Shown here one piece after another: positions 12,787 to 30,513 of a stretch of DNA of 64,000 nucleotides. Position 1 is the stretch's first letter. Each line of letters starts with the position of its first letter. The notes under the pieces were generated by a model that made no database searches, was not told where the DNA came from, and saw nothing but the letters and a program-made list of their open reading frames with translations. Source of the DNA: Methanofollis tationis (GTDB taxonomy: Archaea; Halobacteriota; Methanomicrobia; Methanomicrobiales; Methanofollaceae); contig NZ_JABXWR010000001.1 in assembly GCF_013377755.1 (NCBI RefSeq), positions 1,065,104-1,129,103 of the forward strand, given 5' to 3'. The position numbers and the translations under genes were made by a program.

Positions 12787-12911
12787 GAAGAGAGATCGGG
12801 GGAGAGGGGGGATAAAAGATGTGGCCGGTCAGGTCCCGTCGAAGTCGATGAGGCCGACGGACAAATCGCAAGGTTTATAGGGCAATGCACGGACTTTTTG
12901 GTAAAGTGACC

Positions 12912-12920
12912 ATTATAAAA
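12912..12920 (+). promoter_or_regulatory. TATA-like element upstream of the hsdM locus
   Basis: ATTATAAAA, the best TATA match ahead of the restriction-modification genes. It lies about 35 bases before a short reading frame (12948) and 147 before hsdM. Confidence 0.4.
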
Positions 12921-12947
12921 GACAGATATTCCAAATTGACCTCTCAG

Positions 12948-13055
12948 ATGGCGATCGAAGGATCGATGTCGCCGAACCCTGCCGGGGCAGGAAGGCAGAA
13001 CACCATACCTTATGCAGATCAATCAGTGTTAGCGCACGCTAACGAAAAGGTATGA
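12948..13055 (+). CDS. Possible 35-residue leader peptide of hsdM
   Basis: An ATG-to-TGA frame that begins 35 bases after a TATA-like element and ends 3 bases before the hsdM ATG. The sequence (MAIEGSMSPNPAGAGRQNTI...) resembles no family I know. The position fits a translationally coupled leader, but a chance frame in a GC-rich leader is as likely. The inverted repeat at 13028-13043 falls inside it. Confidence 0.25.
   Translation: MAIEGSMSPNPAGAGRQNTIPYADQSVLAHANEKV
13028..13043. promoter_or_regulatory. Inverted repeat just before hsdM
   Basis: GTTAGCG-CA-CGCTAAC: perfect 7-bp arms with a 2-base centre, ending 15 bases before the hsdM ATG. This could be an operator or a short RNA hairpin limiting translation. 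No regulator gene for it is visible nearby. Confidence 0.45.
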
Positions 13056-13058
13056 GAA

Positions 13059-15158
13059 ATGGCTCAACTGGAACATATCGAAGCAATCGAAAAACGGCTC
13101 TGGACCGCGGCGGATACCCTGCGGGCGAACTCGAACTATGCAAGCAACGAGTACTTCCTGCCGGTCATGGGCCTGATCTTTCTGCGGCACGCGTACAGCC
13201 GTTTCCTCGCGGTCAAGGACGATATTGAAGCACACCTCCCACAACGCGGCGGCAGGACCAGGGCGCTGACCAAGGAGGACTTCTCCCGGAAGAGCGCCAT
13301 CTTCCTGCAGCCCATGGCGCAGTTCGACCACCTGGTCTCTCTCACGGACAGCGACGATCGCGCCAGGGCGATCATCGATGCGATGGAGTCTATCGAAGGC
13401 GATTACGAGACCCTCAGGGGTGTTCTGCCCAAGAGCGAATACCAGGAGCTGGATAACGGTGTGCTCGGCCATCTCCTGCGCACGCTCAACCCCGACGAGC
13501 TCAGGCGTGTCTCGGGCGATGTGTTCGGCCGCATCTACGAGTACTTCCTCACCCAGTTCGCCGACCAGAAGGCCCATGATGCCGGCGAGTTTTTCACGCC
13601 GGTCTCGCTGGTCTCGCTCATCGCCAACATCCTCGAACCCGAAGGCGGCACCGTCCTGGACCCGGCCTGCGGTTCAGGCGGCATGTTTGTCCAGAGCGCC
13701 CGGTTCGTCGAGCGCCGCCACGAAAACCCGGTGGATAAACTCACCTTCTACGGGCTGGAGAAGAACGCCACCACCATCCGCCTGGCGAAGATGAACCTGG
13801 CCGTCCACGGGCTGGAGGGTGATATCCAGAAGGCAATCACCTACTACGAAGACCCCCACGAACTGGCGGGCAGGGCCGACTTCGTGATGGCCAATCCCCC
13901 GTTCAACGTCGATGAGATCGACGCGGACAGGGTCAAGAGAGACCCCCGCCTCCCATTCGGGCTGCCGGGGGTCAACAAGAAGGGCAAGGTCTCGAACGGC
14001 AACTACGTCTGGATCAGCTACTTCTACAGTTACTTAAACGAGCACGGGCGGGCGGGTTTTGTCATGTCCTCCCAGGCCTCAAGCGCCGGGCACGCGGAGG
14101 CCGCGGTCAGGCAGGAACTGATCGAGACCGGCGATGTGGAGATCATGGTCGCGATCCGCTCCAACTTCTTCTACACCCGTTCGGTGCCGTGCGAGCTCTG
14201 GTTCCTCAACCGCGCCAAACCGGAGGAGCACCGCGATGCGGTGCTGATGATCGATGCGCGGAATATCTACCGCAAGGTCACCCGCAAGATCTACGATTTT
14301 TCGCCGGAGCAGGAGCAGAACATTCTGGCCATCGTCTGGCTCTATCGCGGTGAGACCGGGGAATACCTGGATCTCGTGGCCAGGTACTGCCGGCGGGTGC
14401 TGGATGAAGGGGAAGGCTGTTTTGCCGCCCGGGAAGATGACGGCGAATCGATCGAGCCGCTGCCGTCGTTCATCGCTTCTCTGTCGGCGCTGCGCGAGGC
14501 GATGGGGCCGTTTCTGGCGATCTTGCCCGCAGATAACCCCCATGCCGGGGTGCTCGGGGATTTCGACGAGGCCGATCGTGCATTCAGGGCCGATGTTGAA
14601 GAATTCCAGGAGGTGGTGTCCGACCAGCGGGCAGCGTGGAAAGAGCAGAAGACCACCAACGGCGACCTCAAGAAGGCGGTGGACCGTCTCGCCCCGCTGG
14701 CTGAGTCCGGCCGCGACCTGGTCAGGCAGAGCGACCTGCTCTACAAACTTGCATGCCGCCTCATCGAGACCTGCGAGAGCGCGGCCGACGCCCGCGCCGG
14801 CCGCGAGGTCGCCCGCGCCCGGAAGGCCGCGGACGAGGCGCGGCAGGGGGCCGTGGAGCACCTCAAGCAGGTGCGCTACTTCTGGCGGCAGGCGAGCTGG
14901 CTGACCGAACGCTTCCCGGAGGCGACGTTCCGCGATGTGGAGGGGCTGGTCAGACTGGTGGACCGGGCAGAGATCGAGGCGAACGACTGGTCGCTCACGC
15001 CCGGACGCTACGTGGGTGTCGCCCCGGAGGAGGAGGACGAGGACTTCGACTTCGAGGAGGCGCTCCGCGAGATCCACGCGGAGCTGGAGGATCTCAACGC
15101 CGAGGCGGTGCACCTGGCGGCGACGATCAGGAGGAACTTCGAGGAGCTGGGGATATGA
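13059..15158 (+). CDS. hsdM: Type I restriction-modification methyltransferase subunit HsdM
   Basis: 699 residues. HsdM N-terminal helical domain, then SAM motif I VLDPACGSGGMF (about residues 199-211) and catalytic NPPF (about residue 279) of N6-adenine methylases. The long C-terminal part (residues about 460-699) is helical and probably contacts the specificity subunit. Alone it cannot choose a target; it needs HsdS. The hsdS downstream is broken and hsdR is reduced to a tail, so this methyltransferase is probably orphaned unless another HsdS exists in the genome. Its last codon overlaps the next gene as ATGA. Confidence 0.9.
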   Translation: MAQLEHIEAIEKRLWTAADTLRANSNYASNEYFLPVMGLIFLRHAYSRFLAVKDDIEAHLPQRGGRTRALTKEDFSRKSAIFLQPMAQFDHLVSLTDSDDRARAIIDAMESIEGDYETLRGVLPKSEYQELDNGVLGHLLRTLNPDELRRVSGDVFGRIYEYFLTQFADQKAHDAGEFFTPVSLVSLIANILEPEGGTVLDPACGSGGMFVQSARFVERRHENPVDKLTFYGLEKNATTIRLAKMNLAVHGLEGDIQKAITYYEDPHELAGRADFVMANPPFNVDEIDADRVKRDPRLPFGLPGVNKKGKVSNGNYVWISYFYSYLNEHGRAGFVMSSQASSAGHAEAAVRQELIETGDVEIMVAIRSNFFYTRSVPCELWFLNRAKPEEHRDAVLMIDARNIYRKVTRKIYDFSPEQEQNILAIVWLYRGETGEYLDLVARYCRRVLDEGEGCFAAREDDGESIEPLPSFIASLSALREAMGPFLAILPADNPHAGVLGDFDEADRAFRADVEEFQEVVSDQRAAWKEQKTTNGDLKKAVDRLAPLAESGRDLVRQSDLLYKLACRLIETCESAADARAGREVARARKAADEARQGAVEHLKQVRYFWRQASWLTERFPEATFRDVEGLVRLVDRAEIEANDWSLTPGRYVGVAPEEEDEDFDFEEALREIHAELEDLNAEAVHLAATIRRNFEELGI

Positions 15159-16270
15159 AGATGGCATCAGATGGCCCTGACGCTGACGGGGAGAGGAGAG
15201 CACTGGGAAGAATCAAGGAAAATGCTTCTTTTCCCGCACCGATAGGCAAAAACGTCCTGCCTGCGGACTATGCCGGGGTACTCGAAGACATTAAAGAACG
15301 AATTTGGTCGGAGCGGCTGAGAGTCACCCTTGCGGCCAATACGGCCATGATTCTTTTGTACTGGGATATTGGAAGGATAATCCTGGAACGCCAGGAAAAA
15401 GAGGGATGGGGTGCGAAGGTTATCGATCGCCTGTCGCACGACCTCAAAACCGCCTTTCCTGATATGAAGGGATTTTCCCCCCGCAATCTGAAGTACATGC
15501 GTACCTTTTCCGGGTCCTGGTCTGACCGGGAATTTGTGCAACGCACCATTGCACGAATTCCGTGGCGCAGCAATATCGCTCTGCTCGATAAACTGAAAGA
15601 TCCGGACGTGCGCCTATGGTATGCGCAAAAAACCATCGAAAACGGTTGGAGCCGGGAGATACTTGATATCCATATCGAGAACCGCCTGCATGAACGGCAG
15701 GGCAGGGCACTGAACAATTTTGAGCAGTCCCTCCCCCCTGCCGATTCGGATATGGCCGCACAGGTGTTTAAAGATCCGTATCTTTTCGATTTTCTGGGAA
15801 CTGCCGATCCGAGGAAGGAGCGTGAAGTCGAGCGGGCCCTGGTGGACCACGTTCAGAGTTTTCTTCTTGAAATGGGAACCGGATTCGCGTATGTCGGCAG
15901 ACAGGTTTTGCTGGAGGTAGGGGACCGCGATTTTTCTCTCGACCTGCTCTTTTACCACCTGAAACTGCGCTGTTTCGTGGTGGTCGAGTTGAAGGCCGTG
16001 CCGTTTGATCCGGCTTTTGTGGGACAACTCAACCTCTATCTCTCTGCCGTCGACGATCTGTTGCGGCATCCAGATGACAATGCAACCATCGGGCTGCTGC
16101 TCTGCAAGAACAAGGACAGGCTGGTCGTGGAGTACGCTCTCCGCGGATTGAGCAGCCCTATGGGGGTGGCAACCTGGGAGACGAGATTGACCGAGCGCCT
16201 GCCCGAAGACCTGAAAGGCAGCCTCCCCACGATTGAGGAGATCGAGGCGGAACTGAGGGATGAAGAGTGA
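15155..16270 (+). CDS. PDDEXK nuclease-domain protein, YhcG/DUF1016 family
   Basis: 371 residues. The N-terminal DUF1016 domain includes NTAMILLYWDIGRIILERQ, SPRNLKYMRTF and IPWRSNIALLDKLKD. The C-terminal PDDEXK nuclease shows FLLEMGTGFAYVGRQ, DFSLDLLFYHLKLRCFVVVELK with the catalytic D...ExK at about residues 262-280. This family is often found inside type I restriction loci between hsdM and hsdS, as here. It overlaps hsdM as ATGA, so translation is coupled. Its function is not proven; a defence or DNA-processing role is inferred. All key acidic residues appear present. Confidence 0.85.
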   Translation: MKMASDGPDADGERRALGRIKENASFPAPIGKNVLPADYAGVLEDIKERIWSERLRVTLAANTAMILLYWDIGRIILERQEKEGWGAKVIDRLSHDLKTAFPDMKGFSPRNLKYMRTFSGSWSDREFVQRTIARIPWRSNIALLDKLKDPDVRLWYAQKTIENGWSREILDIHIENRLHERQGRALNNFEQSLPPADSDMAAQVFKDPYLFDFLGTADPRKEREVERALVDHVQSFLLEMGTGFAYVGRQVLLEVGDRDFSLDLLFYHLKLRCFVVVELKAVPFDPAFVGQLNLYLSAVDDLLRHPDDNATIGLLLCKNKDRLVVEYALRGLSSPMGVATWETRLTERLPEDLKGSLPTIEEIEAELRDEE

Positions 16271-16590
16271 GTCCGGCCGATTATGAGGGGTCCGGTGCCT
16301 TTACCTGCGTGACCGGCGATCGGTCGCATTCGCCCGGGCGGCGCACCGGGAAGTACCGCGACAGCGAAAAACTCCAACCACCGGTTGGAGAAACCGGCTG
16401 GAGCCACAATCTCATCATCATGTCGCGTCGCAAGGACCCGCCGGAGCGCTCCCTGATCGGCCGTGTCGAGGAGTTCCTGCGGGCGATGGGCGGGCTGTTC
16501 GCTTTCGTCGGCAGCCAGTTGCCCGGGGAGCTGAGGGGAGAACTCCCTGGCCCGGAGGAGATCTCGAGGCTGCTGGAGGGTGTGGGATGA
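16267..16590 (+). pseudogene. Remnant of a second YhcG/DUF1016 gene
   Basis: The open frame (GTGA overlap with the gene before) contains two pieces of YhcG-family protein out of context: SEKLQPPVGETGWSHNLIIM followed by SRRKDPPER, which matches the DUF1016 'SWSHNLIIMSRCKDPLER' block, and RVEEFLRAMGGLFAFVGSQ, which matches the start of the PDDEXK domain. The roughly 100 residues expected between them, and the catalytic ELK after them, are gone. It is best read as a decayed paralogue of the preceding nuclease, of a different subfamily. It could still be translated as a 107-residue protein. Confidence 0.6.
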
Positions 16591-16651
16591 TGGTTGAGCA
16601 GGTTGAGAGGGCAGGCAGATCAGGGGCGGCGATGTTTGAGGGGGTAATGGT

Positions 16652-17472
16652 GTGATATGGAAGAAACAGAAACTCGAATCCATCGCATCTGATGAACCGT
16701 ATTCGTTTGTTGGTGGTCCATCTGGCTCGAAACTTACGACACGTGACTACATCGATACAGGCATTCCCGTGATTCGAGGCTCCTATTTGAACAGCGGGAG
16801 ATTCCTGGATATGTCCGATTTTGTGGCTTTGTAGAATCGGGCATGAGTCTGGGAGGGCGACTCAAGCATACCCCATGAAATGTTTTTCATGGTAAATCCT
16901 ATTCTGGCGTGCTTGAACCGGGGGACTACGCCCCCGGACCCCCGCGCAGGATAGGTGGGGATATGGCCCCCCGCACGTCCTGTTCGCTCTTCCCGGGGCC
17001 CGTCCGCTCCAACGGGGTGAAACCTCCGGCGGCAGTATGGGGAAGGCGGGGGATCCGCGCTCTCTCCCTGCGATTACAGGAGATACGTCAAACTCGGTGT
17101 GTGGGATTCTACAAAGACGATTTTGTTTATTTCTCGGCATCAAAGGTCCGAAAGGCTCTATCGAGCAATCTGGCGAAGCCAGGAGATCTTGTATTTACCC
17201 AACGCGGCACTCTTGGTCAGGTGGCCTTGATCCCCAACAACATCCTCAAGGCGGAGAAGCTTCGCGTCGATCACTGGCGCGACAAGGAAGCCACCCGCGA
17301 CGCCGTTCGACTTGTCATCCGCGATTTCCTCTGGAGCGAATCCACCGGCCTGCCGGTGAATCACTACACCGAAGACGACGTGAAGGCCAGGGCTGAGGAT
17401 GTGTATCGTCATGTCTACCGCGCCTATCCAACGCTCCCGTCGCCGTTCTACGAAAAGAGCGCATCGGTATAA
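16652..17472 (+). pseudogene. hsdS: Broken hsdS specificity gene fused to the 3' end of hsdR
   Basis: Three parts. 16652-16834: the start of a type I specificity subunit (KLESIASDEPYSFVGGPSGS, then TGIPVIRGSYLNSGRFLDMS), stopped by TAG inside an insertion. 16825-17118: MITE-like insertion. 17119-17238: the HsdS frame resumes (DFVYFSASKVRKALSSNLAK, PGDLVFTQRGTLGQVALIP), then abruptly becomes the C-terminus of an HsdR helicase-nuclease subunit (KLRVDHWRDKEATRDAVRLV, IRDFLWSESTGLPV, YPTLPSPFYE). So a deletion removed most of hsdS and nearly all of hsdR. The locus cannot restrict DNA. Confidence 0.85.
16825..17118. mobile_element. 294-bp MITE-like insertion in hsdS
   Basis: Ends are near-perfect 14-bp inverted repeats: GGCTTTGTAGAATC on the left (16825-16838) and the reverse complement of GTCTTTGTAGAATC on the right (17105-17118), one mismatch. 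It is flanked by an 8-bp direct repeat GATTTTGT (16817-16824 and 17119-17126), as left by transposition. No transposase fits in 294 bp, so it is non-autonomous and would need a partner IS elsewhere. Joining the flanks restores the HsdS frame (MSDFVYFSASK). Confidence 0.85.
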
Positions 17473-17671
17473 TGCAACGGACGCGGGAAAGCCGCACCGG
17501 AGGAATCGGAAAGGGACGCCATCACCAGGGACTGGAGCGGCAATGCCTATAATCTGACACCTATCGGCCTCGCCGTAAGAGAGTCTCGATGCCTGACAGA
17601 AAACGGCGTTTCGTCCTCCAGAGCCCCAGACGGATTCCTCAAAAGAGAAAGGGGGGAACCTTCTCTCCCTT

Positions 17672-20323: not shown

Positions 20324-22113
20324 GTGGAGACCGAGATCGTCCTGATGTTCCTCGTCATCGCAACAGCCGTCGCCCTCTTCGTCACCGAACGGCTCAGGGT
20401 CGACCTGGTCGCCCTCATCGTCCTCCTCATGCTCTTCTGGTTCGGGCTGGTGACCCCGCAGGAGGCGATCGCGGGGTTCGCCAGCAACGCCGTGATCGCC
20501 GTCATCTCGGTGATGATCCTGGGCGGCGGGATCGAACGCACCGGGGTCACGAGCCACCTGAGCCGGTTCATCGTCGGCATTGCCGGAAAAAACGAAAAGC
20601 GGCTTCTTGTCATATTCTCCGCCGTCGTCGGCGGCCTCTCCGCCTTCATCCAGAACATCGGCTCCGTCGCCCTCTTCCACCCCTCACTGATGAGGATCGC
20701 AAAAACGACAGACATCCCGCCCTCCCGCCTCGTCATGCCGATGGGGTTTGCGGCGATCACCGGCGGCACCCTCACCATGATCGGTTCAGGGGCCCTGATC
20801 ATCTTAAACGACCTCCTGGTCTCCAGCGGCGAAGAGGCGTTCGGGTTCTTCGCGGTGACGCCGGTGGGTCTTCTCCTCCTCTGTACGGCAATCCTGTATT
20901 TCCTCCTGCTGGGCCCATACGTCCTCCCCGTCGGTCACCCTGAGGCTCACAGGCCCGGGAGCCAGGAGGATCTCGTGGACACCTGGAACCTCCCCACCGG
21001 GATGCACCACTACTACATCCCGGCCGCCAGCCCCCTTGACGGCAAGGAGAGAGAGGATGTGCGCCTGAAGGCCGATTACTCCCTCCACCTCCTCGCCATC
21101 ACCGAAAAAAAGACGTCTCCTATGCGCCGTGGCGGCACGCCACCCTGCATGCCGGGCAATACCTCACCCTCCTGGGCAGAGAGGAGGACGCAGAACGGTT
21201 CGCATCCGACTACTCGCTCCAGCGCAGCCTCTACCAGGAGCGCCTGTCCGCGGAGGTCGGGGGCGTGTATGCCGGTTTTGCAGAGATCGTGGTCAGACCG
21301 CACGCCCCGTTCACCGGCAGAACCCTGCGGGAGATCGCATTCAGAAAGACCTACGGCGTCGAGCCCATCATGTTCTCCTCAGGAGGTTCCGAGATGCGCA
21401 TGGGGTTCGTCGACACCCCACTCTCGGCCGGCGACGTCATCGTGGTCTTCGGGCCGTGGAACAACATCCACGCCCTGGCCACCGACCCGAACTTCGTCCT
21501 CTCGACCCGGGTCGAGGAGCCCGCGGTGCGAAGGGAGAAGGCGCCCGTCGCCCTCCTCTGCTTTGCCGGGGGGATCGCCCTCACCCTGACCGGGATCCCG
21601 ATCTCCATGGGCCTCCTCACCGGGGCGCTCGTCATGATCCTGGCCCGCGTGCTCAGCATCGACGAAGCCTACCGCTCGATCGACTGGAAGACGATCTTCC
21701 TGCTCGCAGGCCTCATCCCGCTCGGGACGGCGATGATCAACACCGGGACGGCGGCCCTGATCGCCGGCACCGTGCTCCCGCTCATCGGGGACGCCCACCC
21801 CATTCTGCTCTTCATCGGGATCGGCGCACTCACGACCCTGTTCACCCTGATCATGTCCAACCTCGGGGCGGTGGTCATCCTGGTCCCGATCGCTCTTCTC
21901 ATCGGCGCCGAAACCGGGATCGACCCCCGCGGTCTCGCCCTGCTCGTCGGGCTCTGCGCCTCCAACTCATTTCTCCTGCCGACGCACCAGGTGAACGCCT
22001 TTTTGATGTCATCGGGCGGCTACCACACGCGCGATTATCTCAAGGCGGGCAGCATCCTGACCGTCCTGTTTCTCATCATCGTCTCGGGATGGATTTATAT
22101 GGTCTTTGTATGA
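20324..22113 (+). CDS. SLC13-type transporter with two RCK/TrkA-C domains, frameshifted
   Basis: The first frame (20324-21109) codes five or six membrane segments (SLC13/CitMHS start, FASNAVIAVISVMILGGGIE, AFIQNIGSVALF) and the start of an RCK-C domain. At a run of seven A (21105-21111) the coding frame moves by -1; the second frame (21106-22113) gives the rest of RCK-C 1 (WRHATLHAGQYLTLLG), RCK-C 2 (YAGFAEIVVRPHAPF) and the remaining membrane half (MINTGTAALIAGTVLP, CASNSFLLPTHQVNAFL). The two parts join to one ordinary transporter of about 596 residues. The run reads A AAA AAG in the first frame, a classical -1 slippery site, so this is either programmed or a one-base insertion or error. 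GTG start has GGAGGG 7 bases upstream. Confidence 0.75.
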
Positions 22114-22150
22114 TCCTCTCGTCCAAGAGAAGAGGGGAGTGGATGAGAGA

Positions 22151-23515
22151 ATGGTAATCCAGCAGTTTTTCATACCGGGCATCGCGCACAGCTCGTACCT
22201 GATCGGCGCCTCGGGGACCTGCGCCATCATCGATCCCGCACGGGACGTCGACCGCTACCTCGAGGCCGCAAAAGACCTCGGGCTTATGATCACGCATATC
22301 CTTGAGACGCACCTCCACGCCGATTTCGTCTCCGGCCACATGGACCTGGCAGAGAAGACCGGCGCCCGGATCTATGCGCCGGGGTCGGGTTCCTGCGAGT
22401 TCGAGCACGAGCCGGTGGGCGACGGCACGCAGTTCTCGGTCGGCGGGATCAGGTTCGATGTCCTGGATACGCCCGGGCACACCCCGGACGGCGTCACCTA
22501 CGTGGCCACCGACCTCTCCCGGGGCGAAGAGCCCTTCGCCGTCTTCCCCGGCGACACGCTCTTTGTCGGCGACGTGGGGAGGCCCGACCTGTTTCCCGGA
22601 CAGGCCCGGGACCTTGCGGCGCACCTCCATGAAAGCCTGCACACGAAGGTCCTCACGCTGCCCGACCACTGCATGCTCTTTCCCGCGCATGGCGCCGGGT
22701 CGCTCTGCGGCCGGGCGATGGGCTCGATGCGCTCCTCCACCATCGGCTACGAGCGGCGGTTCAACGAGGCGCTGCGGATCGCCGATAGGGAGGAGTTCAT
22801 CCGCTCGCTCACCGAGGGGATGCCGCCGGCGCCGGACCATTTCGCCCGGTGCAGCGAGATCAACCGCCGCGGCCCGGCTCTGGTCCGCACCCTCCCGGCG
22901 ACGAGACCGATGAAACCAGCCGAGTTTCGGGAGCGGGCTGCACGGGAGGACACGATCGTCCTTTCGGTCAATGACTATGCCAGCTTCGGGGGGCAGCACG
23001 TCCCGGGGAGTTACCACATCGACCTCGGCGGGAACTTCTCCACCTTTGCCGGCTGGGTGCTCCCGCCGGAGAGCGAGATCCTGCTCGTCGCCGACAGCCC
23101 GGCACAGGCGGAGGCGGCGGTGGTGATGCTCCGCCGCGTCGGGCTCGACCTGACCGTCGGCTATCTCGAGGGCGGGACGCACGCATGGGCGATGGCGGGC
23201 TATCCCACCGGCCATGTCCCCCAGGTCTCGCCGGCCGAGGTGCACGGGATGGTCGCCGAGGGCGGGGCGGTGCTGGTGGACGTGCGCACCACCGAGGAGT
23301 ACGAGGAGGACCATGTGGCCGGTGCGGTCAATATCATGGTGACGGACCTGAGGGAACGCGCCGCCGGGCTCGATCCGGCGCGGCCGGTCGTCGTGATGTG
23401 CAGCACCGGGCACCGGTCGAGCCTGGGGTGCAGCATCCTCAAGCAGAAGGGATTTGCCAGCGTCTACAATGCCGCAGGCGGGATCACCGCCTACCGTGCG
23501 GCAGGATATACCTGA
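22151..23515 (+). CDS. ETHE1-like metallo-beta-lactamase fused to two rhodanese domains
   Basis: 454 residues. MBL domain with ETHLHADFVSG (about residue 53), GHTPDG and GDTLFVGDVGRPDL, as in persulfide dioxygenases. Then a rhodanese domain without its cysteine (ILLVADSPAQ) and an active-type rhodanese with CSTGHRSS (Cys near residue 417). Related bacterial proteins handle sulfane sulfur or persulfides. In an anaerobe an oxygen-using reaction is unlikely, so hydrolytic or sulfur-transfer chemistry is possible. ATG 22151 is chosen because the upstream ATGs lack homology. It heads a probable operon with two YeeE/YedE proteins, which fits sulfur uptake and handling. Confidence 0.85.
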   Translation: MVIQQFFIPGIAHSSYLIGASGTCAIIDPARDVDRYLEAAKDLGLMITHILETHLHADFVSGHMDLAEKTGARIYAPGSGSCEFEHEPVGDGTQFSVGGIRFDVLDTPGHTPDGVTYVATDLSRGEEPFAVFPGDTLFVGDVGRPDLFPGQARDLAAHLHESLHTKVLTLPDHCMLFPAHGAGSLCGRAMGSMRSSTIGYERRFNEALRIADREEFIRSLTEGMPPAPDHFARCSEINRRGPALVRTLPATRPMKPAEFRERAAREDTIVLSVNDYASFGGQHVPGSYHIDLGGNFSTFAGWVLPPESEILLVADSPAQAEAAVVMLRRVGLDLTVGYLEGGTHAWAMAGYPTGHVPQVSPAEVHGMVAEGGAVLVDVRTTEEYEEDHVAGAVNIMVTDLRERAAGLDPARPVVVMCSTGHRSSLGCSILKQKGFASVYNAAGGITAYRAAGYT

Positions 23516-27408: not shown

Positions 27409-27567
27409 CGCCTGACCCCTGTCATCTCCAGAGGGTCGGACGCCGCCGGAAAAAAAGGTTGCTGAAACGAGGGAGGAGGCATCAGGAAAGCAGGGTCTCG
27501 TCGAGGACGAGTGAAGACCTTTTTCTAACCAGGATGACTATCTGCGTGTGCATCCGTGTCCCTGCCC

Positions 27568-28650
27568 CTAAAAATGTTCTTTGAGGTCATTCATCCATGA
27601 GGGTTTAATGAGCCCTTCATGCTGCAAACGGCCGACGACAATTCCTGGATGAATACCGATCATTGCCGAGAATTCTTTCACAGCGCGTTTGGACCGCAAT
27701 TTCGGCAAATATTCATTATATCTGGAGGGAATGAGAATTTCGCTCGCAAAATCATTTGCCTCATCTTCCTCTTCGGAATGCCCACTATTCGGATCGAGAG
27801 AATCGTCCAGAAACACTGCGTGCCTGCCATGCTTCAGAATGTGGGCCGCCTCATGAAAGAAACTAAACCAGAATTTATCGTTCGTCTTCCCGTAGAACGA
27901 CAACTGTATGAGAGGACGCCCGTTCAACCAGCGTGCCGCTCCGCTGACATGCGCTCGCGGGATTGCCGGAATAAATATCAACGACACCCCTGCGCCTTTG
28001 CAAAACCGCTGCATCTCATCTTTGAATACATCGGGATCTTTTGTCGTCAGGCTCCGAATGTTTTCAAGTAATTTCGCAAATCTGGAAGCATTATAGGGAG
28101 ACATTTCGGTGTTCTCTGTTTTTACTTCGCCCAGGCGCAACCATGCCGACACAGACCCGATATCGTGTTCTTTCTTTGCAGAGCGAAATGCTACCGCCAT
28201 ATTCTGATATTGTGCCCTCCAGTCATCGGGAGAGGCAACGCCATAAAAGTGGAGCACGTTATCCACCACGTCTGGCTTATTTTTCGAAGTTAATCGGACC
28301 TTCTCAATAGCCTCCGCATCCATCAATTCTTTGACGGGCAATTCATTGAGCCAGCCGACCCACTCTTCAAGGTTCTGCGAGTCTTGCAAACGGTGAAGGC
28401 GTTCCCGGTATTGGATCTCCCGGTTCAGCCAGAATCCTGCGGTGCTTCCAACGACGCGCTCAAGTTTCAACGCGGTTTCCTGAGTAATCGGTGCTTTTCC
28501 GTTAATGAGGAGACTGATTTGCTTTGTGGAACTACCCATTCTCTTTGCAAACTCTTTTTGCGTCCAGCCACGCTCCTCCAGGAGATCTGCAATGGTGTCC
28601 CCGGGAGGCGAGATCCAATCTGGAGAAAATTTTTTTCTCCCCTCAGTCAT
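27568..28650 (-). CDS. HigA-like antitoxin fused to an ImmA/IrrE metallopeptidase domain
   Basis: 360 residues. An XRE helix-turn-helix (TIADLLEERGWTQKEFAKRM, then ISLLINGKAPIT) is followed by a helical linker and a C-terminal ImmA/IrrE domain with zinc-site HEAAHILKHG (about residue 263) and EEDEANDFASEILIP. Such HTH-protease fusions pair with HigB/RelE toxins. Here a toxin remnant lies directly upstream, overlapping the ATG by 8 bases, as in intact pairs. The gene is clearly less GC-rich than its surroundings, which points to transfer. ATG 28650 is favoured over TTG 28668. Confidence 0.8.
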   Translation of the reverse strand: MTEGRKKFSPDWISPPGDTIADLLEERGWTQKEFAKRMGSSTKQISLLINGKAPITQETALKLERVVGSTAGFWLNREIQYRERLHRLQDSQNLEEWVGWLNELPVKELMDAEAIEKVRLTSKNKPDVVDNVLHFYGVASPDDWRAQYQNMAVAFRSAKKEHDIGSVSAWLRLGEVKTENTEMSPYNASRFAKLLENIRSLTTKDPDVFKDEMQRFCKGAGVSLIFIPAIPRAHVSGAARWLNGRPLIQLSFYGKTNDKFWFSFFHEAAHILKHGRHAVFLDDSLDPNSGHSEEEDEANDFASEILIPSRYNEYLPKLRSKRAVKEFSAMIGIHPGIVVGRLQHEGLIKPSWMNDLKEHF

Positions 28651-28830
28651 GATAATCACGCACCTCAATAATACAGACTTTTGTCACGCCGGACCAATCG
28701 ATACCCCCATCATCGCGACGCGGAGTCGGATCGTTTGCAGGGACGAGAATCAACCGTTTTCCATCAGGCAACTCTATCGCCAACTGCCCCTGACGCTCTC
28801 CCTTCAACGGATGGGGCCTCCCGGCACTCA
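28643..28830 (-). pseudogene. HigB/RelE-type toxin, N-terminus lost to an IS element
   Basis: The remaining 62 residues match the C-terminal two thirds of HigB toxins: LHYLSAGRPHPLKGERQGQL, then LPDGKRLILVPANDP, WSGVTKVCIIEVRDYHD. The expected first 30-40 residues are missing because the frame runs into the left end of IS256-family copy 1 at 28831. The open frame continues to 28909 within the IS, so a chimaeric protein could be made, but it should be inactive. The missing part is not on the other side of the IS. Confidence 0.7.
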
Positions 28831-30087
28831 GATAGTGTAACGAATTTTCTGTAAAAATAATTTGGCCCTGAATCCAACCTAGATTTGGACAAAGGAGAAA
28901 CAGGGCCATGGATCCCTTAGCGTTAATCGAAGATTATCTTTCCGATAATGAGAATGGCATGAAGACCCTCATCACCTGGTTCCTCAACCAGGTGATGCTG
29001 CTCGAAGCCCTCCACCAGGCGGGAGCCGAGCAGTATGAACGAACCGATGCGCGGAAGGCTCACCGAAACGGCTACAAGAAGCGCTCTCTAAAAACCCGAT
29101 ATGGAGAAACGATCCTCCAGAAACCACAATTCCGAGAGTTCCCCTTCGAAACACAGGTATTTGGACGCTATTCCCGGGTTGAGAAGGCTCTTGAGAATGC
29201 TATCTTTGAATCCTACCTTCAGGGAGTCTCAACCCGCCGGATCCAGGAGATTGTTGCTCATTTTGGCATCGAACAACTCTCTCCTGCTTCAGTATCCAGG
29301 ATAGCAAAGGACCTCGATGAACAGGTCCATGCATTCCTTCAGAGGCCGATTGAACAGGAGATTCCCTATCTCTTTGTGGATGCTTCGTACTACAAAGTCA
29401 GAGAGGGACCACGCTACATCACCAAAGCTCTTCTGGTGATCGCCGGTGTTCGAATGGATGGCTACCGGGAAATCCTGGGAGCTAGAATCACTGATTGTGA
29501 AAATGAGATGTTCTGGTCGGGATTGTTCGAAGACCTCAAAGAACGAGGATTGGTGGGTGTCAAGATGGTTGTCTCAGATGGTCATGCCGGGATCCAGAAG
29601 GCGGCGGAAGCCACCTTCCTCGGCGCATCGTGGCAGATGTGCTCGGTCCATTGCACCCGGGCGGTTTTAAAGAATATTCCACGGAAACATCAGAAAGAAG
29701 TTGCTGAGTCCTTGAAGGAGGCATATGGGGACGAGGAGAGACTGCAGGAGCTTGCAGACGATCTGAACGAACGAGGATATCGGAAAGCGGCCAATACGAT
29801 CGAGAGATTCATCCCGGGACTTATGAGTTACACGGCGTTCCCGAAAGAGCACGCAAAGCGGATCCGAACGACGAACATGATGGAAAGAGTCAACAAGGAA
29901 CTGAAACGGAGAACCAAAGTTGTAGGGGCCTTTCCCAATGAAGAGTCACTCCTCAGGCTGGCAGGATCCATCCTGATGGACATCAATGAGGAGTGGGTGA
30001 CCGGCAGAAGATATTTGACGATGGAGGGGGAATGATCAAACAAGGAGACAGGGCTCAGACGAATTACAGAAGATCTGAAACACTACC
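28831..30087 (+). mobile_element. IS256-family element, copy 1
   Basis: 1257 bp, from GATAGTGTAACG to AAACACTACC; the ends are imperfect inverted repeats (GATAGTGT against GGTAGTGT). The same length and near-identical sequence occur at 56460-57716 and 59508-60764. No target duplication: the left flank is GGCACTCA and the right GACAGGTA, so DNA next to this copy has been deleted or rearranged after insertion. Confidence 0.9.
28908..30035 (+). CDS. IS256-family (Mutator) transposase
   Basis: 375 residues, full length. DDE catalytic set: D in PYLFVDASYYKVREG, D in KMVVSDGHAGIQKA and E in RTTNMMERVNKELKRRT, with the CSVHCTRAVLKNIPRK helix of the family. Two residues differ from copies 2 and 3 (T in AAEATFLG, E in RLQELADD). 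Appears functional. The start ATG follows AAAGGAGAAACAGGGCC, which includes a GGAG ribosome site. Confidence 0.93.
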   Translation: MDPLALIEDYLSDNENGMKTLITWFLNQVMLLEALHQAGAEQYERTDARKAHRNGYKKRSLKTRYGETILQKPQFREFPFETQVFGRYSRVEKALENAIFESYLQGVSTRRIQEIVAHFGIEQLSPASVSRIAKDLDEQVHAFLQRPIEQEIPYLFVDASYYKVREGPRYITKALLVIAGVRMDGYREILGARITDCENEMFWSGLFEDLKERGLVGVKMVVSDGHAGIQKAAEATFLGASWQMCSVHCTRAVLKNIPRKHQKEVAESLKEAYGDEERLQELADDLNERGYRKAANTIERFIPGLMSYTAFPKEHAKRIRTTNMMERVNKELKRRTKVVGAFPNEESLLRLAGSILMDINEEWVTGRRYLTMEGE

Positions 30088-30513
30088 GACAGGTACCCCC
30101 CGTAGATTCTATAGCCGATGCGGCTCCCCGGCATCAGAGGGGCGACGGCAGAACCCATGATCCATGATCAGAATCACAGAGCCGGGATGACTACCTCAAT
30201 GGATCATAAAAAAGGCAGCGAACCCTTCCCTACTTCGTCCCACCCACCTTACGGTGGCCTCATCCTTTTCGGGAAGGACGTACTCGCTACACACATACAT
30301 ACCATCAATCAGTGTATACATTTTTCTTCTACTCCCCCTCTTCACCCGCCGGGAGAGCGGGCAGTGCTGAAAGAGGGGGCGGCGAAGATCACCTGAACGG
30401 ACCTGCATTCATCGTGCACACGGCCCGGAAGCACGATATAAAGGGGACGAGAGATTTTTTTGAAGGGAGATAGAAAATCTTCGGAGCAGAACGGTCGAAC
30501 AAAAATGAAAGAA
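30088..30513. other. Intergenic region between IS256 copy 1 and tRNA-Asn
   Basis: 426 bases, AT/GC mixed. A 41-codon leftward frame (30321-30196) exists but has no family match. Short T- and A-rich stretches near 30316-30330. No RNA or repeat structure recognised. Confidence 0.4.

What the first reader, a model, noticed from the sequence alone, without database searches (positions are those of the whole stretch)
20324..22113. Frame change in an SLC13/RCK transporter exactly at a slippery A AAA AAG heptamer
The protein continues without loss in the -1 frame after the run at 21105-21111. In the zero frame the bases read A AAA AAG, the classical -1 slippery site. This is either programmed frameshifting (rare in archaea), a natural one-base insertion, or a sequencing error in a homopolymer. 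Frameshifting inside the RCK domain would give a truncated regulatory form and a full transporter.
Basis: partly seen in the sequence, partly recalled or inferred. Interest (0 to 1): 0.6.

Follow-up and report, generated by a model that had tools for sequence, protein, structure and literature searches.

The report
One-base frameshift in methanogen transporter gene
A transporter gene in this methane-making archaeon has lost its reading frame at a run of seven A's, and because every relative compared has the gene unbroken without the slippery run, this is an ordinary one-base deletion (or a sequencing error) rather than a programmed frameshift.

Summary
The frame change is really in the sequence. 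Homology to an SLC13/CitMHS transporter with TrkA_C (RCK) insert runs in the zero frame from 20324 and continues in the -1 frame from 21112, across A7 at 21105-21111; the zero frame reads A AAA AAG at 21106-21112. It is not conserved: over 100 homologous loci cross the point in one frame, including a 95%-identical orthologue with one more base there, and no slippery heptamer occurs in the ten nearest. So this genome alone has a one-base deletion, and such a deletion mechanically creates the heptamer. No upstream Shine-Dalgarno-like element exists; the hairpin 8 nt downstream is no stronger than chance and also occurs in the unbroken orthologue; the genome has tRNA-Lys(CUU), which should weaken slippage on AAG. 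Both halves show equal purifying selection, so the lesion is very recent or an assembly error. It is the only one-base homopolymer frame break in about 177 kb compared, and a second SLC13/RCK gene here is truly decayed, so I slightly favour real mutation (0.52) over error (0.40). Low-level leaky rescue, as in Saccharolobus fucA1, is not excluded.

The parts
20324..21103 (+). 5' part of the SLC13/CitMHS-RCK transporter gene in its true (zero) frame, first 260 codons; Pfam CitMHS first half
   Evidence: Pfam CitMHS E 3.7e-52 residues 17-240; 95% identity to orthologue L087
21105..21111 (+). run of seven A where the frame changes; one base shorter than needed for one frame
   Evidence: sequence; one-base gap against all ten nearest orthologue loci and in the whole-region comparison with G002
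21106..21112 (+). zero-frame heptamer A AAA AAG (slippery-type); not present in the ten nearest orthologue loci
21113..21589 (+). out-of-frame tail of the zero-frame ORF (158 residues without homology), stop 21587-21589
21112..22113 (+). -1 frame continuation: RCK/TrkA_C region and second transporter half; 333 codons plus stop
   Evidence: translation; CitMHS 126-280, TrkA_C 57-123, Na_sulph_symp 169-325
21121..21151 (+). hairpin 8 nt downstream of the heptamer, -14.7 kcal/mol; not beyond chance and identical in the unbroken orthologue
   Evidence: z -1.15, 26 of 200 shuffles fold as well; same 47 bases and fold in L087
21265..22113 (+). 282-aa ORF from an internal GTG in the -1 frame; possible but unlikely separate C-terminal piece
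   Evidence: the GGAGG before it is not kept in L087 or several other orthologues

Best explanation
A real, very recent one-base deletion in a short A-rich stretch of an SLC13/CitMHS transporter gene with an RCK (TrkA_C) insert, in a Methanofollis-like methanogen. Replication slippage removed one base where an ancestor encoded Glu-Lys-Lys-Asp, so most ribosomes now make half a transporter with a junk tail. The heptamer is a by-product of the deletion. A small amount of full protein might still be made by accidental ribosomal or RNA-polymerase slippage on the A run, but nothing shows that this is programmed. Shown: frame change, its uniqueness, the one-base difference, conservation of both halves. 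Inferred: that the base is truly missing in the organism, and the loss of function.
For: Over 100 homologous loci (some duplicates) read through the point in one frame. The ten nearest loci have one more base there and no X XXY YYZ site; the 95% orthologue reads GAG AAA AAT GAC. In about 177 kb aligned with that relative, this is the only one-base homopolymer frame break in a well-supported gene, while about 179 coding homopolymer runs of six or more occur in the roughly 224 kb sampled and the other run-length differences checked lie outside genes or at gene edges. Two- and four-base indels suggest that a few other genes are naturally broken. The gene class is dispensable: a second SLC13/RCK gene in this genome is decayed by about 850 bp of internal deletion, and another genus member holds only a remnant of the orthologue. 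Homopolymer runs are both indel-prone and bypass-prone (PMC3812077).
Against: dN/dS is the same on both sides of the break (0.13 and 0.14), and changes assigned to this lineage downstream are 20 synonymous to 5 non-synonymous codons. There is no second lesion in the gene. This fits a sequencing error equally well.
Confidence: 0.52

Rival explanations
1. Assembly or sequencing error: the organism has an intact gene and one base of the A run was dropped in the consensus.
For: Homopolymer position; everything else in the gene is intact and under ordinary purifying selection on both sides; orthologues unbroken.
Against: In the roughly 224 kb sampled, with about 179 coding homopolymer runs of six or more (32 of seven or more), no other one-base homopolymer break was found in a well-supported gene, so this assembly is not generally homopolymer-error-prone.
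Confidence: 0.4
2. Functional -1 ribosomal frameshifting (or transcriptional slippage) at A AAA AAG makes the full transporter at a useful level, as in Saccharolobus solfataricus fucA1.
For: Correct heptamer in phase at the junction; a hairpin begins 8 nt downstream, inside the 5-9 nt range; downstream frame under purifying selection; fucA1 is also broken where most orthologues are full length.
Against: Site restricted to one genome; hairpin no stronger than shuffles and identical in the unbroken orthologue; no upstream Shine-Dalgarno-like motif; tRNA-Lys(CUU) and tRNA-Lys(UUU) both present, and the CUU tRNA should reduce slippage on AAG (PMC4066793; PMC5009743); no nearby zero-frame stop, instead a 158-residue junk tail; in-frame slippery A heptamers occur in other, unbroken ORFs of this genome.
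Confidence: 0.05
3. Split gene: the second half is started separately at GTG 21265 and the two halves assemble.
For: A 282-aa ORF starts at 21265, with a GGAGG motif shortly before it, at the edge of the TrkA_C domain.
Against: The motif is altered in L087 (CGAGG) and in several others; the first piece would carry a junk tail and about 50 residues between the pieces would be missing; no orthologue is split.
Confidence: 0.02

Closest known systems
Saccharolobus solfataricus fucA1 (-1 frameshifting, A-AAA-AAT)
   Same: Archaeal gene split by a -1 shift at an in-phase A heptamer with a hairpin after it; orthologues in most related species are full length with the A run differing by one base (PMC8211752).
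   Different: fucA1 has Z=T, tandem rare codons and measured full-length product (about 5-10%); here Z=G, a cognate tRNA-Lys(CUU), no measurement, and the orthologues do not keep the A run.
Magnesium chelatase A_AAA_AAR frameshift genes (Methanocaldococcus, Methanococcus)
   Same: Methanogen genes with the same heptamer type in overlapping frames (PMC5009743).
   Different: There the site is under purifying selection across species; here it is in one genome only.
E. coli dnaX -1 frameshift (heptamer and stimulators from own knowledge; sole tRNA-Lys from PMC5009743)
   Same: Same heptamer A AAA AAG.
   Different: dnaX has an upstream Shine-Dalgarno-like element, a strong hairpin and a host with a sole tRNA-Lys; neither the upstream element nor the tRNA condition holds here.
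Frameshifting indels in homonucleotide repeats with leaky bypass (M.HaeIII laboratory drift, PMC3812077)
   Same: One-base change in an A run within a coding region, potentially partly bypassed by slippage.
   Different: Natural genome, no expression evidence.

Membership tests
Programmed -1 ribosomal frameshift cassette | In-phase X XXY YYZ slippery heptamer at the frame junction | tested here: met
   A AAA AAG at 21106-21112
Programmed -1 ribosomal frameshift cassette | Slippery site and split frame conserved in related genes | tested here: not met
   Over 100 loci unbroken; heptamer absent from the ten nearest
Programmed -1 ribosomal frameshift cassette | Stimulatory RNA structure 5-9 nt downstream, stronger than chance | tested here: not met
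   Hairpin at 8 nt, -14.7 kcal/mol, z -1.15, 26 of 200 shuffles as good; identical in the unbroken orthologue. Pseudoknots were not modelled
Programmed -1 ribosomal frameshift cassette | Upstream internal Shine-Dalgarno-like element (bacterial type, optional) | tested here: not met
   C-rich stretch before the run; only AAGG at 21068, some 38 nt upstream
Programmed -1 ribosomal frameshift cassette | tRNA-Lys set that favours slippage on AAG (UUU anticodon only) | tested here: not met
   tRNA-Lys CUU (L151) and UUU (L149) both found
Programmed -1 ribosomal frameshift cassette | Full-length and truncated products observed | not testable with these tools
   needs proteomics or a reporter
SLC13 / CitMHS ion transporter with RCK_C insert | Two CitMHS halves flanking TrkA_C | tested here: met
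   Pfam PF03600 in both pieces, PF02080 between them. NCBIfam TIGR00785 (dass) matches below its cut-off, so DASS membership proper is not claimed
Frameshifted gene (indel pseudogene) | Genome-specific indel against unbroken orthologues | tested here: met
Frameshifted gene (indel pseudogene) | Relaxed selection or further lesions | tested here: not met
   dN/dS 0.13 before and 0.14 after the break, no further lesion: so very recent, or an error

The most novel reading that the evidence does not exclude
A methanogen transporter whose full-length form depends on low-efficiency -1 slippage at A AAA AAG, a second fucA1-like case in which a young indel is tolerated by recoding.
Probability: 0.06. 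Interest if true: 0.55.

Novelty: already known. Interest (0 to 1): 0.12.

Why it matters
If a real mutation, it is an ordinary recent gene loss in a dispensable transporter family. If an error, it is a single annotation correction. Only if junction peptides were found would it add to the very short list of archaeal -1 recoding cases.

Tried and rejected
Programmed frameshifting: rejected on conservation, structure, upstream element and tRNA set. Generally error-prone assembly: not supported, one case in about 177 kb compared. Split gene with internal start at 21265: motif not conserved. Second intact copy covering the function: none close in the genome; best others about 22-32% identical and one of them decayed. 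Naming the species or its sequencing method: not resolved; the genus is Methanofollis by inference, because a genome of the same genus (L092) gives the same match as the named 'uncultured Methanofollis' locus L008.

Full report
Observation. The gene begins at GTG 20324 and its zero frame is open to 21589 (421 aa). Homology to SLC13/CitMHS transporters holds in that frame to about residue 263 and then continues in the -1 frame from 21112 to the stop ending at 22113. The window reads ACC GAA AAA AAG ACG; the A run is 21105-21111 and the in-phase heptamer A AAA AAG is 21106-21112. The stated refuting result is not: removing one A (six A) would give the +1 frame, which has no homology; the full frame corresponds to one more base, or two fewer.

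Relatives. I collected 80 loci from named genomes and 29 more from related genomes. Except for one locus cut off before the junction (L073), the matches cross it in one frame. A relative with 95% protein identity (G002, L087) reads GAG AAA AAT GAC; others read GAA AAG AAG GAG, GAA GAA GAA GAG, GAA GAG GAT GAG and so on. The number of codons is the same in these, so the window differs by a one-base deletion. None of these ten nearest loci has a slippery heptamer.

Stimulatory elements. A hairpin at 21121-21151 starts 8 nt after the heptamer and has -14.7 kcal/mol, but 26 of 200 shuffles do as well (z -1.15), an 80-nt stretch gives z -0.29, and L087, which needs no shift, has exactly the same sequence and fold. 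Upstream there is no Shine-Dalgarno-like element. The genome has tRNA-Lys with CUU and with UUU anticodons; published work expects the CUU tRNA to pair well with AAG and lower slippage, though it does not exclude use of such motifs (PMC4066793; PMC5009743). In about 224 kb of this genome, two predicted ORFs carry in-phase A_AAA_AAG and fourteen more sites are other in-phase A heptamers in open ORFs.

Selection. Against L087, dN/dS is 0.13 before the break and 0.14 after it. With L088 as outgroup, the window lineage has 20 synonymous and 5 non-synonymous codon changes after the break, like the intact sister's 15 and 4. The second half was therefore translated in the -1 frame for nearly all of the time since the split; the break is recent, or not real. 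Recoding would also keep the second half conserved, so this test alone does not exclude it.

Error or mutation. About 177 kb of this genome was aligned to G002. A frame test over 174 matched ORFs flagged nine places. Where an indel could be assigned, the others involve two or four bases or lie in poorly aligned stretches; I did not adjudicate each of them fully. The transporter is the only one-base change in a homopolymer inside a well-supported gene, although some 179 coding runs of six or more bases are present. Other run-length differences checked lie outside genes or at gene edges. So the assembly is not generally faulty, but one error per 200 kb cannot be excluded. Favouring mutation, a second SLC13/RCK gene of this genome is reduced to fragments relative to an intact 607-aa version in G002, and G004 of the same genus holds only a remnant of the orthologue; the family is being lost in parts of this genus.

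Function. The protein is a CitMHS-type transporter with TrkA_C between its halves; substrate unknown. The zero-frame product would have only the first half plus 158 meaningless residues, so a regulatory short form is implausible (inference).

Comparison with known cases. The nearest precedent is fucA1 of Saccharolobus solfataricus, also broken at an A heptamer where relatives are full length, with measured product of about 5-10% (PMC8211752). This is why low-level rescue cannot be dismissed from sequence alone. The magnesium chelatase genes of Methanocaldococcus and Methanococcus show what conserved archaeal frameshifting looks like, namely a site under purifying selection (PMC5009743); that is not seen here. 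Homopolymer indels with leaky bypass are a documented general phenomenon (PMC3812077).

Verdict. An ordinary one-base frame break in a homopolymer, real mutation slightly more likely than error; programmed frameshifting unlikely.

Noticed in passing
L144:4154-5061 (G000 C1 about 159.15-160.06 kb): A second SLC13/RCK paralogue in the same genome is decayed: about 850 bp internal deletion, a smaller deletion and a frame change, relative to an intact 607-aa gene in G002.
   Followed up: partly
L142:3158-3577 (G004 C1 about 280.16-280.58 kb): Another member of the genus keeps only residues 20-88 and 546-596 of the orthologue, a deletion remnant.
   Followed up: partly
G000 C1 about 1,008,963 (stretch L129): A two-base loss in a GA repeat shortens an ORF that is 457 aa in G002.
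   Followed up: no
window 12827-17661: Island absent from the syntenic place in G002: type I methyltransferase (13059-15158), a DUF1016/YhcG PDDEXK nuclease (14753-16270; PADLOC PDC-S02), and a short ORF (16909-17472) with weak type I specificity-subunit similarity that looks like a rearranged remnant.
   Followed up: partly
window 27468-30496: Stretch absent from the syntenic place in G002, holding a Mutator-family transposase (28908-30035) and an HTH/IrrE-type peptidase protein (27568-28668, minus strand).
   Followed up: partly
window 22139-23515: The gene just downstream is an intact metallo-beta-lactamase/rhodanese fusion, persulfide-dioxygenase-like by architecture (inference).
   Followed up: no
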